Under the pieces are notes generated by a model, which saw only the letters and a program-made list of their open reading frames with translations, was not told the origin of the DNA and ran no database searches. A DNA stretch of 41,284 nt from Acidimicrobiales bacterium (GTDB taxonomy: Bacteria > Actinomycetota > Acidimicrobiia > Acidimicrobiales > Ilumatobacteraceae), in NCBI GenBank assembly GCA_025463415.1, contig JAOBWO010000472.1:1-41284 (forward strand), read 5' to 3'. Below, in pieces: positions 8,576-14,010 of the stretch (positions within the stretch are counted from its first letter, which is position 1; the number at the start of each line of letters is the position of its first letter). A program made the position numbers and the translations under genes.

Positions 8576-9605
8576 TCTCGTCGATCAGCCCCCACTCCAG
8601 CGCCGTCGAGGCGCTGACCGGACTGCCGCACAGGGCCAGCAGCGCGCACCGTTGCCGCCCGATCCGGCGGGTGATGCTGACCGTTCCCCCAGCTCCGGGG
8701 ATCAGCCCGAGTGACAGCTCAGGCAGCGCGATGGCGCTGTCCGGGTGTGCGCTGACGTGGCCGGCGAACGCCGGCAGTTCGATGCCGGCGCCCATGCATG
8801 CGCCGTGGATGTGGACGCGGGTGCGATCGCTCAGCTGAGCCATCAACCGGGCCGGCGAGCGCGAGAGTCGCGTCACGTGCGCGTCCGCCGGATCGGCGAA
8901 GCTGCCGAACTCGCCGAGGTCGCCGCCGCTGCAGAACGAGGGGCCGTTGCCGCTCATCTCGATCCGCTGGATCGAATCGTCGACGACGGCGAGGGCGAGC
9001 GCTTCGCTGACCGCATCACGCATGTCCCGCCCGAACGCGTTGTGCCGCGCCGGTCGGTCGAGCACGATCCGCAAGGTGTCGCCGGAGCGAGATGCGATCG
9101 CTGCGGGACGGTTCGTGGGCGTGGCGGGTCGAAGTGTGTTCGCCGCTCGCCACGTGGCGAACTCGGCGCCTCCCTGCAGGGTCGAGTAGACCGCCGACTC
9201 CGACGCCAGCCCGTTGTCGATCGACAGTGCAGCGGTCGCACGCAGCAACACCGCCAGCGAGCGCGCGGCAACCGGGTTGTGCCCGACGGTGGCCAGCACG
9301 CCCGCCAGCAGAGGGTCGTCGTCGGCGAGCACGACGTCGAACAACCTCGGTGGATCCTCCAGCTGCTCGCCGCGACCGATGCCGATCACGACGATCGGGA
9401 GCGACCCGGCGTCGGCAACGGCGCCGAGCGCATCGGCGTCGTCGATCTCGACCACCACATGCGCGAGCCCGCCGGCCAGCTGCTCGTCGCTGAACGGCGA
9501 GCGGAGCAGCTCGAGCAGTTCGCGAGAAGTGATCAGTGCCGGTCCGATCCTCCCGAGACTATGTGTGCCGATGATGATGTTCCGGTGTTCCCCCCGGAAG
9601 ATCAT
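8541..9605 (-). CDS. Enoyl-CoA hydratase/isomerase family protein with N-terminal extension
   Basis: IVLDRPARHNAFGRDMRDAVSEAL, GNGPSFCSGGDLGEFG, HGACMGAGIELPAFAGHV, PELSLGLIPGAGGTVSITRRIG; start at 9605 uncertain. Confidence 0.82.
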   Translation of the reverse strand: MIFRGEHRNIIIGTHSLGRIGPALITSRELLELLRSPFSDEQLAGGLAHVVVEIDDADALGAVADAGSLPIVVIGIGRGEQLEDPPRLFDVVLADDDPLLAGVLATVGHNPVAARSLAVLLRATAALSIDNGLASESAVYSTLQGGAEFATWRAANTLRPATPTNRPAAIASRSGDTLRIVLDRPARHNAFGRDMRDAVSEALALAVVDDSIQRIEMSGNGPSFCSGGDLGEFGSFADPADAHVTRLSRSPARLMAQLSDRTRVHIHGACMGAGIELPAFAGHVSAHPDSAIALPELSLGLIPGAGGTVSITRRIGRQRCALLALCGSPVSASTALEWGLIDEISPTTGAASRP

Positions 9606-10432
9606 CTGCTCCGCGATCTCGGCATCGTGACGCACCGCGTGTCGCCCACCCGCACCCTCAGCGCCACCTCGCTGGACCCCTCCAAGCGGGACCGCACCGG
9701 ACGCCCGGCGGTCGGGTTCCTGTCCGCCTTGGTCGACATCAACGCCGCCCAGGTCGCGCTGCAGGCATCGCAGCCGCGATGGACCGCGACAGCGGCACTG
9801 TCTCTGCACGCCTCCGGGAGGGTCGCAGGGGGAACGCTCGTCTCGGACGCCCAGCTGGTTCGCCTCGGTTCCACCCCGATCGTCGTCCGCGCGTCGGTGC
9901 ACGATGCGGGCCGTGCGCAGCCCGACGAACTGCTGGACGCACTGGCGGACGACGGCGGGCTCGCCGTCGCCGCCATGCCGCGCATCGCATCAGCGGTGCT
10001 GACGTTCGGCCGCATCCCGGCGGAGGCATCGGTGGCGTCGGCCACCTACGACCCGGCGACGTCGCCGCCCCGGTCACGCCTCGAGTCGTCCGGCGCTTCT
10101 TGCGCCGAGCCGCTCGCGGAACGACTCGGCACCGTCGTCACACGGCCGGGAACGATCGAGATCGACCGGCCGCCTACACGCGCAACAGCTTCGGAACCGT
10201 GTTCGGCGGTGCCTACGGGATGTTGTTCCAGGCGCCGGCGAGTCGCTCGACTCCGGGCTCGTCGCAACGGATCCGGAGGTTCAGTACCTCAGCCAGACCG
10301 AGCTCGGCCCGGTCGTCGTCACCGCCGAGGTCGTGCGCGACGACCAGCACGGCGTCGTGTGCGATGTCGCCGCAATCGTCGGGGAGAAGGCGCTGAGCAT
10401 CGGCAGCGTCACGCTCGCCCGTCGCATGTGAA
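9561..10432 (+). pseudogene. Hotdog-fold thioesterase-like gene broken by two frameshifts
   Basis: Frame 0: HLLRDLGIVTHRVSPTRTLSATSLDPS...EPLAERLGTVVTRPGTIEIDRPP; frame 2: YTRNSFGTVFGGAYGMLFQAPA; frame 1: ESLDSGLVATDPEVQYLSQTELGPVVVTAEVVRDDQHGVVCDVAAIVGEKALSIGSVTLARRM*. Confidence 0.75.
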
Positions 10433-10441
10433 CGGCCCGGG

Positions 10442-10465
10442 AGCGGTGCACAACCCGGCACCGCT
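10442..10465 (+). terminator. Candidate hairpin terminator after the thioesterase-like gene
   Basis: Perfect 8-bp inverted repeat AGCGGTGC-acaacccg-GCACCGCT, 10 nt after the stop; no T-tract. Confidence 0.4.
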
Positions 10466-10495
10466 GCCCGCCACCTCCAGATTGTCGCAGGGGTG

Positions 10496-10516
10496 GGGGC
10501 TTGCCGCAAGGACCCC
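10496..10516 (+). promoter_or_regulatory. Rifamycin-associated element (RAE)-like inverted repeat upstream of rph
   Basis: GGGGCTTGCCGCAAGGACCCC: CTTGC-C-GCAAG core flanked by GGGG/CCCC, 61 nt before the rph ATG. Confidence 0.75.
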
Positions 10517-10577
10517 GATCGTGCTGTGAATGGTCGCTGTCGGCTCACGGCGGGCGACACATCGGAGGTCAAGAGAC

Positions 10578-13283
10578 ATGCGCACGTACTGGACGAATGC
10601 CGCCGGCGCGACCGTGTTGACGCTGCGGGATGTCGACCGGACGTCCGTTGCCAGGGTCGGTGGCAAGGGAGCCAACCTGGGCGAGCTGTCGCGGATCGAC
10701 GGCATCGACGTGCCGGCAGGTTTCTGCGTCACCACCGAGGCCTTCCGCCGGATCGTTGCGGCCGCTCCGTTCATCGACGTGCTGCTCGATCGCCTGTCGA
10801 ACCTGGCTCCGGATGACCCGGTCGCGGTTCGTGCCCTCAGCGCAGAGATCCGCGATGCGATCGTCGCTGTCGAGATCCCGTCCGGCATGGACGCGGCGAT
10901 CGCGGAGGCGGTCGCCGAGCTGGGCATCAACGCCGCCTACGCGGTGCGGTCGAGCGCGACGTCCGAGGACTCGCCGACCGCATCGTTCGCCGGTCAGCAG
11001 GACTCGTACCTGAACGTCGTGGGACTGCAGCAGATTCTCCGGCACGTCAGCCGGTGCTGGGCCTCGCTGTTCACCGAGCGAGCGGTCACCTACCGCATGC
11101 GCCGCGGGATCGACCCACGCACGGCAGAGATGGCCGTGGTCGTGCAGCGGATGGTGTTCCCCGATGCGGCGGGGATCATGTTCACCGCCGACCCGATCAC
11201 GTCGAACCGGCGGATCGCTGTGATCGAGGCGGGCTACGGCCTCGGTGAAGCGTTGGTCTCCGGGTTGGTCGACGCCGACGTGTTCGTGGTGCGCGATGGC
11301 GAGATCATCACCACGACCATCGGTCGGAAGCAGCTCGAGATCCGCGAGTCACCATCGGGCGGCACCGAGCATCGCGCCGTCGAGTTGCACCGTCAGGCGC
11401 AGCCATCGCTGACCGGCGCGCAGGTGCGGCGCCTCGCGCAGCTGGGCCGGCGGATCGAGACCCACTTCGGGTGCCCGCAGGACATCGAGTGGTGTTCGGT
11501 CGGTGACGTCCTCCACATCGTCCAGACCCGGCCGATCACCACCCTGTTCCCGATCCCCAGCAGCGCCGACGGCGCCAACCACGTGTACGTCTCCGTCGGC
11601 CATCAGCAGATGATGACGGATCCGATGAAGCCCTTGGGGCTCTCGCTCTGGCAGTCGATCGCGATGATCCCCATGCACGCGGCCGCCGGTCGGCTGTTCG
11701 TCGACGTGACGGCGCGACTGGCGTCACCTGCGACGCGTTCGGCAGTCATTGACGGCCTGGGCACGTCGGACCCGTTGATCGGGGATGCGTTGCGGGCCGT
11801 CGTCGATCGCGCCGACTTCATCGAGGAGCGCCCGGATGACGTACGCGGCGCGCCGGCGCCGGGCACCGCGCCGACCCCGATCCCCACCGATCCGGGGATC
11901 GTCTCGGCGTTGCGCGACCGCACCGAGGCGTCCATCGCTGAGGCGCGGCGCAGCATCCGGGGCAGGACGGGCGAAGCGTTGCTCGACTTCATCGTCGCGG
12001 ACGTCCAGGAGCTGAAGCACGTCCTGACGGACCCGCAGAGCATGCAGGTGATCGTGGCTGGGATGGATGCCACGGCGTGGCTGAACGAACAGCTGCAGGC
12101 GTGGCTCGGCGAGAAGAACGCCGCGGATGCGCTGGCTCGATCGGTACCCGGCAACGTCACATCGGAGATGGGGCTTGCGCTGCTCGACGTGGCCGACGCC
12201 GTCCGGCCCCATCCCGAGGTCGTGGCTTTCCTGCGCGACGTGCGCGACGGACGCGACGTGCATGGGGATGGCTTCCTCGATCAGCTGCCGATGCTGGCCG
12301 GCGGAACCCAGGCGCGAAACTCGGTCCTGGGCTATCTGGATGTCTACGGCATGCGTTGCGTCGGCGAGATCGACATCACCAGGCCGCGCTGGAGCGAGCG
12401 TCCGACGACGTTGGTGCCGCTGATCCTCGGCAACGTCGAGAACTTCGCGGCCGGAGAGGCGGAGCGGCGGTTCGCCGAGGGGCAGCGCGCTGCGGCGAGG
12501 AAGGAGGAGGAGATCCTGCAGCACCTCCGAGCGCTGCCGGACGGGGCGCGGAAGGCGGAGCAGGCGAAGCGGATGATCGATCGCATCCGCACGTTCATCG
12601 GCTACCGCGAGCACCCGAAGTACGGCATCGTCTGCCGCACCTTTCTGTACAAGCAGGCGCTGATGGCCGAGGCCGACCGGCTCGTCGCGGCGGGCATCGT
12701 CGGTGAGGCGGAGGACATCTTCTTGCTGACGCTGCAGGAACTGCACGAGGTCGTGCGCACGGGCGCACGCGTCGACGACGAGCTGATCCGCCGCCGTACG
12801 GCCGAGCACGCGTCGTATCAGGCGCTGACGCCGCCGAGGGTGCTGACGTCCGACGGTGAGGTCGTGGCAGGGTCCTACCGTCGCGGCGACCTGCCCGCGG
12901 GCGCATTGGCCGGACTGCCGGTCTCTGCCGGCACGGTCGAGGGGCGGGCCCGGATCATCCTCGACATCGCGGATGCCGACCTCGAACCCGGTGACATCCT
13001 CGTGACGGCGTACACGGATCCCAGCTGGTCACCGCTGTTCGTCGCGATCGCCGGGCTCGTGACCGAGGTCGGTGGGCTGATGACCCATGGTGCGGTGATC
13101 GCCCGCGAGTACGGCCTACCGGCGGTCGTCGGAGTCGAACATGCCACCCGGTTGATCCAGAACGGACAGCGCATCCGCGTCAACGGCACGGATGGCTTCG
13201 TCGAGATCCTCACCACCGGTCTGATGGTGCAAGCTGTCGAGGTGGAGCAGGGGGAGCAGACACCGACCGGTGAGGAGGCGTGA
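10578..13283 (+). CDS. rph: Rifamycin-inactivating phosphotransferase (rifampin phosphotransferase, Rph)
   Basis: N-terminal ATP-grasp VGGKGANLGELSRIDGIDVPAGFCVTT; DPMKPLGLSLWQ; FIGYREHPKYGIVCRTFLYKQALMAEADRL; swivel His domain GGLMTHGAVIAREYGLPAVVGVEHATRLIQNGQRIRVNGTDGFVEIL. Confidence 0.9.
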   Translation: MRTYWTNAAGATVLTLRDVDRTSVARVGGKGANLGELSRIDGIDVPAGFCVTTEAFRRIVAAAPFIDVLLDRLSNLAPDDPVAVRALSAEIRDAIVAVEIPSGMDAAIAEAVAELGINAAYAVRSSATSEDSPTASFAGQQDSYLNVVGLQQILRHVSRCWASLFTERAVTYRMRRGIDPRTAEMAVVVQRMVFPDAAGIMFTADPITSNRRIAVIEAGYGLGEALVSGLVDADVFVVRDGEIITTTIGRKQLEIRESPSGGTEHRAVELHRQAQPSLTGAQVRRLAQLGRRIETHFGCPQDIEWCSVGDVLHIVQTRPITTLFPIPSSADGANHVYVSVGHQQMMTDPMKPLGLSLWQSIAMIPMHAAAGRLFVDVTARLASPATRSAVIDGLGTSDPLIGDALRAVVDRADFIEERPDDVRGAPAPGTAPTPIPTDPGIVSALRDRTEASIAEARRSIRGRTGEALLDFIVADVQELKHVLTDPQSMQVIVAGMDATAWLNEQLQAWLGEKNAADALARSVPGNVTSEMGLALLDVADAVRPHPEVVAFLRDVRDGRDVHGDGFLDQLPMLAGGTQARNSVLGYLDVYGMRCVGEIDITRPRWSERPTTLVPLILGNVENFAAGEAERRFAEGQRAAARKEEEILQHLRALPDGARKAEQAKRMIDRIRTFIGYREHPKYGIVCRTFLYKQALMAEADRLVAAGIVGEAEDIFLLTLQELHEVVRTGARVDDELIRRRTAEHASYQALTPPRVLTSDGEVVAGSYRRGDLPAGALAGLPVSAGTVEGRARIILDIADADLEPGDILVTAYTDPSWSPLFVAIAGLVTEVGGLMTHGAVIAREYGLPAVVGVEHATRLIQNGQRIRVNGTDGFVEILTTGLMVQAVEVEQGEQTPTGEEA

Positions 13284-14010
13284 TGGCCGAGGAGTTCTAC
13301 GGACGTGATCTCAGTGAGGCGGAGTTCTGGGGTGTCGATCTGGCGAGGGCGACGCCGCGCGACGTCAACATGACCGGTGTCCGGATGAAGAGCATCAGGC
13401 TGGTCGACGTCGACATCGATGGGTTCGTCGACGCGCTCGTCGTCAACGGGGTCGATGTCACCGGGTTCGTCAACGAGCACGACCGGTGGTACCCGCTGCG
13501 CGGCATGCTTCGGCCCACCGACGTCGCGGGCATGCAGGCCGCGCAGCGCGCGCTCGACGACACATGGGCCGCCACCGTCGCCCGCGCTCGAGGGTTGCAG
13601 GACGAGCAGTTCCACGAATCGGTGGGCGCGAGTGGTCGTTCGTCCAGACGCTGCGGCACCTCGTGTTCGGCGTCGACAAGTGGTTCGCCGAACCGTTGCT
13701 GGGCCAGGCCACGTTCCATGCGCTCGGCCTCGTCGACGGAGGTTCGCGTGAGCGCCCCTGGGTCGGCGTGGACCCCGATGCCCGACCCGGTCTCGACGAC
13801 GTCGTCGCGGTCCGTGACGAGCAATCCGCGCAGCTGAGGGCCTTCCTCGACGGCATCTCCGACGGTGACCTCGACCGCGCGGTCGAGGTGCTCGATGCCG
13901 GCACGGTGCCGATGTCCGAATGCATGTACACCGTCTTCGAGGAGTCCTTCGAGCACCATCGCTACGCCGTGCGCGACCTCGCCCAGCTCGAGGCAGAGCC
14001 GACCGCCTGA
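13283..14010 (+). pseudogene. DinB-family protein with pentapeptide-like N-terminus, single frameshift near 13620-13640
   Basis: Frame 2: FYGRDLSEAEFWGVDLARATPRDVNMTGVRMKSIRLVDVDIDGFVDALVVNGVDVTGFVNEHDRWYP...DEQFHESVG; frame 1: EWSFVQTLRHLVFGVDKWFAEPLLG...YTVFEESFEHHRYAVRDLAQLE. Confidence 0.75.

What the first reader, a model, noticed from the sequence alone, without database searches (positions are those of the whole stretch)
10496..13283. Rifampin phosphotransferase with an RAE-like inverted repeat
Seen directly: GGGGCTTGCCGCAAGGACCCC 61 nt upstream of an Rph-like ORF with ATP-grasp, middle and swivel-His (THGA) regions. Established: the rifamycin-associated element is a conserved inverted repeat (GGGGCTTGC..GCAAGGCCCC type, recalled from the literature) found upstream of actinobacterial rifamycin-inactivation genes. 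This predicts an inducible rifamycin resistance gene embedded in ordinary metabolic genes.
Basis: partly seen in the sequence, partly recalled or inferred. Interest (0 to 1): 0.65.

Follow-up and report, generated by a model that had tools for sequence, protein, structure and literature searches.

The report
Rifamycin-inactivating kinase with two-way promoter element
The gene is a normal rifamycin-phosphorylating resistance enzyme, and the palindrome in front of it is the known rifamycin-associated element; comparing about 110 such elements shows that the palindrome sits exactly midway between two promoters that face away from each other, which makes the unknown switch behind drug-induced resistance testable.

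Summary
Window 10578-13283 is rifampin phosphotransferase (Rph): NCBIfam equivalog at 1430 bits against a cut-off of 999, with the ATP, rifampin and swivel-His residues conserved. GGGGCTTGCCGCAAGGACCCC (10496-10516) is a real rifamycin-associated element (RAE). 71 of 80 related rph genes carry one. All 41 exact RAE sites found in 30 of 397 genomes of the phylum lie beside a HelR, Arr, Rox, Rox-like, Rgt or Rph gene.

New here: the conserved unit is about 80 bp, not 19. The palindrome is flanked at equal distance by two outward-facing -10 hexamers: antisense TANNNT at -21..-26 and sense [CG]ANAAT at +21..+26, each in 96% of 113 sites and almost never at another offset. With the core left out, the flanks still rank the window site first of 82,166 positions. 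In Solirubrobacterales the same -10 pair surrounds a different palindrome (CTCATGAG), in 7 of 7 cases upstream of a rifamycin-inactivation gene.

I infer a symmetric, factor-bound divergent promoter pair whose antisense arm probably holds the sense arm down. The reviews I could read call the RAE mechanism unsolved. The primary RAE papers were not held, so prior description cannot be excluded. The window copy has the weakest -10s. Nothing was tested at the bench.

The parts
10578..13283 (+). rph: rifampin phosphotransferase, 901 aa, ATG 10578, stop TGA 13281-13283
   Evidence: NF041857 1430 bits vs cut-off 999; 52.9% identical to RPH-Lm over 859 aligned residues; K22, R117, E297, Q336, Q337, V368, T523, R666, E667, K670 and H825 conserved, T136 is Ser
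10564..10568 (+). GGAGG ribosome-binding site
   Evidence: sequence
10496..10516 (.). rifamycin-associated element (RAE), class form with a one-base longer right arm
10460..10538 (+). whole conserved element (RAE plus both flanks)
   Evidence: model R1 47.4 bits in the window (the window site is one of the 46 model sequences). Independent test: flank-only PWM trained without the class sites ranks it 1 of 82,166
10501..10506 (+). sense -35-like TTGCCG inside the RAE
10526..10531 (+). sense -10-like GTGAAT (19-nt spacer); lacks the usual A at position 2
10504..10509 (-). antisense -35-like TTGCGG, overlapping the sense -35
10479..10484 (-). antisense -10-like CAATCT (19-nt spacer); alternative GACAAT at 10481-10486 with a 17-nt spacer; lacks the usual T at position 1
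10438..10465 (-). hairpin (AGCGGTGC...GCACCGCT) at the start of the predicted antisense transcript; approximate ends; no T-run in this copy

Best explanation
An inducible rifamycin-resistance gene. Rph charges His837 from ATP and passes the phosphate to the drug, as in RPH-Lm (shown by homology and residue conservation). It is driven by an RAE element. The element is a near-palindrome midway between two divergent promoters: a sense promoter for rph, and an antisense promoter that drives no recognisable conserved gene and in most Actinomycetia relatives would run at once into a terminator-like hairpin (both shown as conserved sequence patterns). Most likely a dimeric, rifamycin-responsive factor binds the palindrome and lets RNA polymerase use the sense promoter, while the antisense promoter competes for polymerase and keeps the sense promoter low without drug (inferred; the factor is unknown).
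For: Rph identity. RAE upstream of 71/80 rph loci. 41/41 exact RAE sites in 30 of 397 genomes lie beside HelR, Arr, Rox, Rox-like, Rgt or Rph genes. Two outward -10s at fixed, equal distance in 96% of 113 unique sites and in 33/33 non-rph sites, with low entropy only at T1, A2 and T6 of the antisense hexamer. 12 chance RAE matches in viral contigs have no such pair. Flank-only score puts the window site first of 82,166. Element with a swapped palindrome but the same -10 pair upstream of 7/7 rifamycin-inactivation genes. Antisense hairpin, mean z -2.0 vs +0.3 for the sense side. No linked regulator gene: no neighbour family in more than 9/80 loci.
Against: The window copy has the poorest -10s (GTGAAT, CAATCT) and its antisense hairpin lacks a T-run. 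No transcription start sites or induction data were available. Related elements share ancestry, so 113 sites are not 113 independent events; the non-rph sites were oriented with a score that includes the -10s, although the gene lay downstream in each. In the class of the window some elements keep the -10s but lose part of the right arm, which a strict dimer site would not predict. The antisense role is inferred from conservation only.
Confidence: 0.6

Rival explanations
1. The RAE is a plain operator: a rifamycin-sensing repressor covers the -35 of the sense promoter, and the antisense -10 is incidental.
For: RAE palindrome overlaps the -35 (PMC10719064 reports this for mycobacterial helD P2). 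Palindromes are classic dimer sites; a swapped palindrome exists.
Against: Antisense TANNNT is kept at exactly -21..-26 in 96% of sites and 33/33 non-rph sites. The CTCATGAG core carries no TTG -35, so something other than derepression of a normal promoter is needed there.
Confidence: 0.25
2. No dedicated factor: RNA polymerase itself senses the drug through competition of the two promoters, a divergent version of the Bacillus helD/pps dual-promoter alarm.
For: Bacillus antisense promoters also have 19-nt spacers and short terminated antisense RNAs (PMC12802891). Canonical antisense -10 against a weaker sense -10. No linked regulator.
Against: Bacillus promoters are convergent and 39 bp apart; shortening them to steric overlap abolished induction. 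RAE promoters share their -35, so a drug-arrested polymerase would block the sense promoter. The palindrome arms extend beyond the -35s.
Confidence: 0.2
3. The enzyme acts on another substrate (PEP synthase-like, aryl ketone or mycotoxin kinase).
For: The superfamily is broad and often misnamed PEP synthase; Rph-like kinases for 4-hydroxyphenylethanones and zearalenone are reported (PMC12167813, PMC11768653, titles and abstracts).
Against: Best hit is the rifamycin equivalog, rifampin-contact residues are kept, and the RAE links it to rifamycin genes only.
Confidence: 0.06
4. The inverted repeat is chance.
For: It is short and the genome is G+C-rich.
Against: Shuffle expectation 0.18 at up to 3 mismatches; flanks alone single out the site.
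Confidence: 0.01

Closest known systems
Rifampin phosphotransferase RPH-Lm (Listeria; PDB 5HV1, 5FBS)
   Same: Full-length architecture, catalytic His, ATP and rifampin-site residues
   Different: 52.9% identical; T136 is Ser and Y351 is Trp here (Y351F had little effect in RPH-Lm, PMC4844700)
Rifamycin-associated element of Actinobacteria (Spanogiannopoulos 2014, cited in PMC12802891 and PMC10719064)
   Same: CTTGC-N-GCAAG palindrome with G/C arms upstream of a rifamycin-resistance gene, overlapping a sense -35
   Different: Right arm one base longer; described here as the centre of a symmetric pair of outward promoters
Bacillus subtilis helD/pps convergent dual-promoter rifampicin alarm (PMC12802891)
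   Same: Sense plus antisense promoter, 19-nt spacers, short terminated antisense RNA, same gene families
   Different: Convergent and separated there; divergent with overlapping -35s and a palindrome here

Membership tests
Rph | Score above the NCBIfam equivalog cut-off over full length | tested here: met
   1430 vs 999 bits, profile 2-864/864
Rph | Catalytic swivel His and ATP-site Lys22, Arg117, Thr136 | tested here: met
   H837, K30, R124 conserved; Thr136 is Ser143, also Ser in 2 of 80 relatives
Rph | Rifampin/phosphate contacts Gln337, Arg666, Glu667, Lys670, Val368 | tested here: met
   all identical
Rph | Phosphorylates rifamycin and confers resistance | not testable with these tools
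   needs enzyme assay
RAE | Inverted repeat GGGNCTTGC-N-GCAAG...CCC in the 5' region | tested here: met
   one extra base in the right arm
RAE | Upstream of a rifamycin-resistance gene, as in relatives | tested here: met
   71/80 rph loci; 41/41 sites in the phylum sample
RAE | Mediates induction by rifamycin | not testable with these tools
   needs reporter assay
Bacillus-type convergent dual promoter | Sense and antisense promoters facing each other about 39 bp apart | tested here: not met
   -10s face outward and -35s overlap

The most novel reading that the evidence does not exclude
The RAE is the centre of a symmetric divergent promoter pair with an exchangeable central palindrome (CTTGCNGCAAG or CTCATGAG). 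Rifamycin switches polymerase from a futile, immediately terminated antisense promoter to the resistance gene, a second solution to the drug-sensing problem besides the convergent Bacillus alarm.
Probability: 0.3. Interest if true: 0.8.

Novelty: new variant of a known kind. Interest (0 to 1): 0.5.

Why it matters
RAE-type control stands in front of every main class of actinobacterial rifamycin resistance (HelR, Arr, Rox, Rgt, Rph), and the accessible reviews say its regulator and mechanism are unknown. Two outward promoters at fixed distance from the palindrome, a swapped palindrome in Solirubrobacterales and half-degraded palindromes in the class of the window give concrete mutants and natural variants with which to decide between a bound factor and polymerase competition. 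The element model also finds diverged elements that the 19-bp pattern misses.

Tried and rejected
(1) A conserved upstream ORF between RAE and rph as a drug-sensing leader peptide: in Streptomyces and Micromonospora it reads as the N-terminus of the glycosyltransferase Rgt, so I took it for a gene remnant; absent in the window. (2) The upstream TATA block as a second sense -10: the plus strand has C, not T, at position 6, while TANNNT fits on the minus strand. (3) A MerR-type site in the 19-nt spacer: the palindrome centre lies on the -35, not in the spacer. (4) A linked regulator gene: none conserved. (5) Further RAE genes in this MAG: none found; Arr absent; rpoB not found with a 90-residue probe, so target resistance could not be judged. 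(6) RAE in viruses: 12 pattern hits, all without the -10 pair. (7) A degenerate class-wide pattern that missed even the window site and a strict two-flank pattern with only 2 hits were poor probes.

Full report
Observation. The ORF from ATG 10578 gives 901 residues, scores 1430 bits against the rifamycin-inactivating phosphotransferase equivalog (cut-off 999), carries the ATP-grasp and swivel domains, and aligns end to end with Listeria RPH. From that alignment, RPH-Lm Lys22, Arg117, Glu297, Gln336, Gln337, Val368, Thr523, Arg666, Glu667, Lys670 and His825 are identical here; Thr136 is Ser and Tyr351 is Trp. Trp is the usual residue at the latter position in 78 of 80 relatives, and Ser at the former in 2 of 80. 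Mutation data for these residues are in PMC4844700.

Is the repeat an RAE? Eighty relatives were fetched from named genomes. Seventy-one carry a core CTTGC-N-GCAAG with G and C arms upstream. The exceptions are mostly outside Actinomycetota (Myxococcus, Leptolyngbya, several Chloroflexi), plus Frankia and a Nocardioidaceae MAG; a Dormibacteraeota locus has a diverged copy and a Solirubrobacteraceae locus a different core. An exact RAE pattern hits 30 of 397 genomes of the phylum, while its reversed control hits 2. All 41 sites read lie beside a gene related to HelR (10), Arr (5), Rox (7), a Rox-like FAD monooxygenase (10), Rgt (2) or Rph (7).

Anatomy. Aligning sites on the palindrome centre shows conservation far beyond 19 bp. 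On the minus strand TANNNT occupies -21..-26 in 96% of 113 unique sites, with 0-4% at any other offset from 12 to 44; on the plus strand NANANT occupies +21..+26 in 96%, with about 0-2% elsewhere. By gene class the figures are 77/81 and 78/81 for rph, and 33/33 on both sides for the others. In the antisense hexamer positions 1, 2 and 6 have low entropy (0.20, 0.07, 0.13 bits; positions 3 and 4 have 1.76 and 1.50), the signature of an actinobacterial -10. The palindrome core TTGC[CG]GCAA gives both promoters an overlapping -35-like TTGC[CG]G and a 19-nt spacer. The two outward hexamers differ (TANNTT and CANAAT), so they are not simply outer arms of a larger palindrome. Twelve chance matches to the RAE core in viral contigs have no such pair in register.

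The window copy. A matrix of the flanks only, with the RAE core left out and trained without the class of the window, gives the window site the best score of 82,166 positions in the window on both strands; the upstream flank alone also ranks first. Its individual -10s are weak (GTGAAT, CAATCT). A consensus scan found no textbook promoter or terminator.

Antisense transcript. From about -33 outward most Actinomycetia loci read GGCAAGGAG...CTCCTTGCC-TTT, a terminator-like hairpin at the very start of the predicted antisense RNA (mean z -2.0 against +0.3 for the sense side, mononucleotide shuffles). No conserved gene lies on that side. Mycobacterial, Acidimicrobiia and window copies do not all show it.

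Variants. A sequence-only model of the element (R1) searched over 395 genomes of the class found 12 genomes with a match. Of 12 sites aligned, most keep the antisense -10 in register; several keep TTGC-N-GCAA and both -10s but have degraded right arms, and they precede Rox-like, Rph or Rgt genes. In Solirubrobacterales, 7 of 232 genomes hold CTCATGAG in place of the RAE core, control 0. All seven have antisense TANNNT and sense CATAAT about 20.5 nt from the new centre and lie 51-108 nt upstream of a Rox-like monooxygenase (6) or Rph (1). The search pattern fixed the core and the sense -10, so only the antisense -10 and the gene behind it are independent confirmation. This core has no TTG, which speaks for a bound factor doing the work of the -35.

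Literature. Only three papers in the library name the element. The FEMS review (PMC10719064) and the 2026 Bacillus paper (PMC12802891) state that the RAE overlaps a sense -35 and that regulator and mechanism are unknown; neither mentions an antisense promoter at the RAE in the passages read. The primary papers (PNAS 2014, Mol Cell 2022) were not held. The Bacillus helD and pps antisense promoters have 19-nt spacers and a short terminated transcript, a notable parallel, but they are convergent and lose induction when brought into steric overlap, so the same collision model cannot simply be moved to the RAE.

Shown, inferred, open. Shown by sequence: Rph identity, RAE identity, the two-sided -10 frame, the swapped core. 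Inferred: that the -10s are used, that a dimeric factor binds the centre, that the antisense arm restrains the sense arm.

Noticed in passing
L181-L187, L023:4861-4934: A second RAE-like core, CTCATGAG, inside the same outward -10 pair, upstream of Rox-like or Rph genes in 7 Solirubrobacterales genomes.
   Followed up: partly
L109, L115, L118, L130, L133, L164, L168-L172 and others: An FAD monooxygenase family (NCBIfam NF005303, hypothetical protein), below the Rox cut-off, is one of the commonest genes behind an RAE; candidate second rifamycin monooxygenase.
   Followed up: partly
L017, L029, L039, L044, L070 and other Streptomyces/Micromonospora-type rph loci, between RAE and rph: Stub ORF matching the N-terminus of Rgt (MRVLLSTYGGRGDVEP...) ahead of rph, as if rph had replaced most of an rgt gene behind the RAE.
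   Followed up: partly
L169-L172, L175, L176: Elements in the class of the window with degraded right palindrome arm but with -10 hexamers kept.
   Followed up: partly
L173 (G289): Diverged RAE followed by what reads as an rph N-terminal fragment without a full gene: likely rph pseudogene.
   Followed up: no
window 13280-14010: Gene overlapping the rph stop; its second half matches DinB_2 in another frame, so a frameshift (assembly error or decay) lies near 13.7 kb.
   Followed up: partly
window about 9600-10431: Upstream coding region appears to change frame twice; no Pfam match in the pieces tried.
   Followed up: partly
L167 (G157): Element half with good antisense -10 but no rifamycin gene downstream; an NACHT-like ATPase ORF lies nearby.
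   Followed up: no
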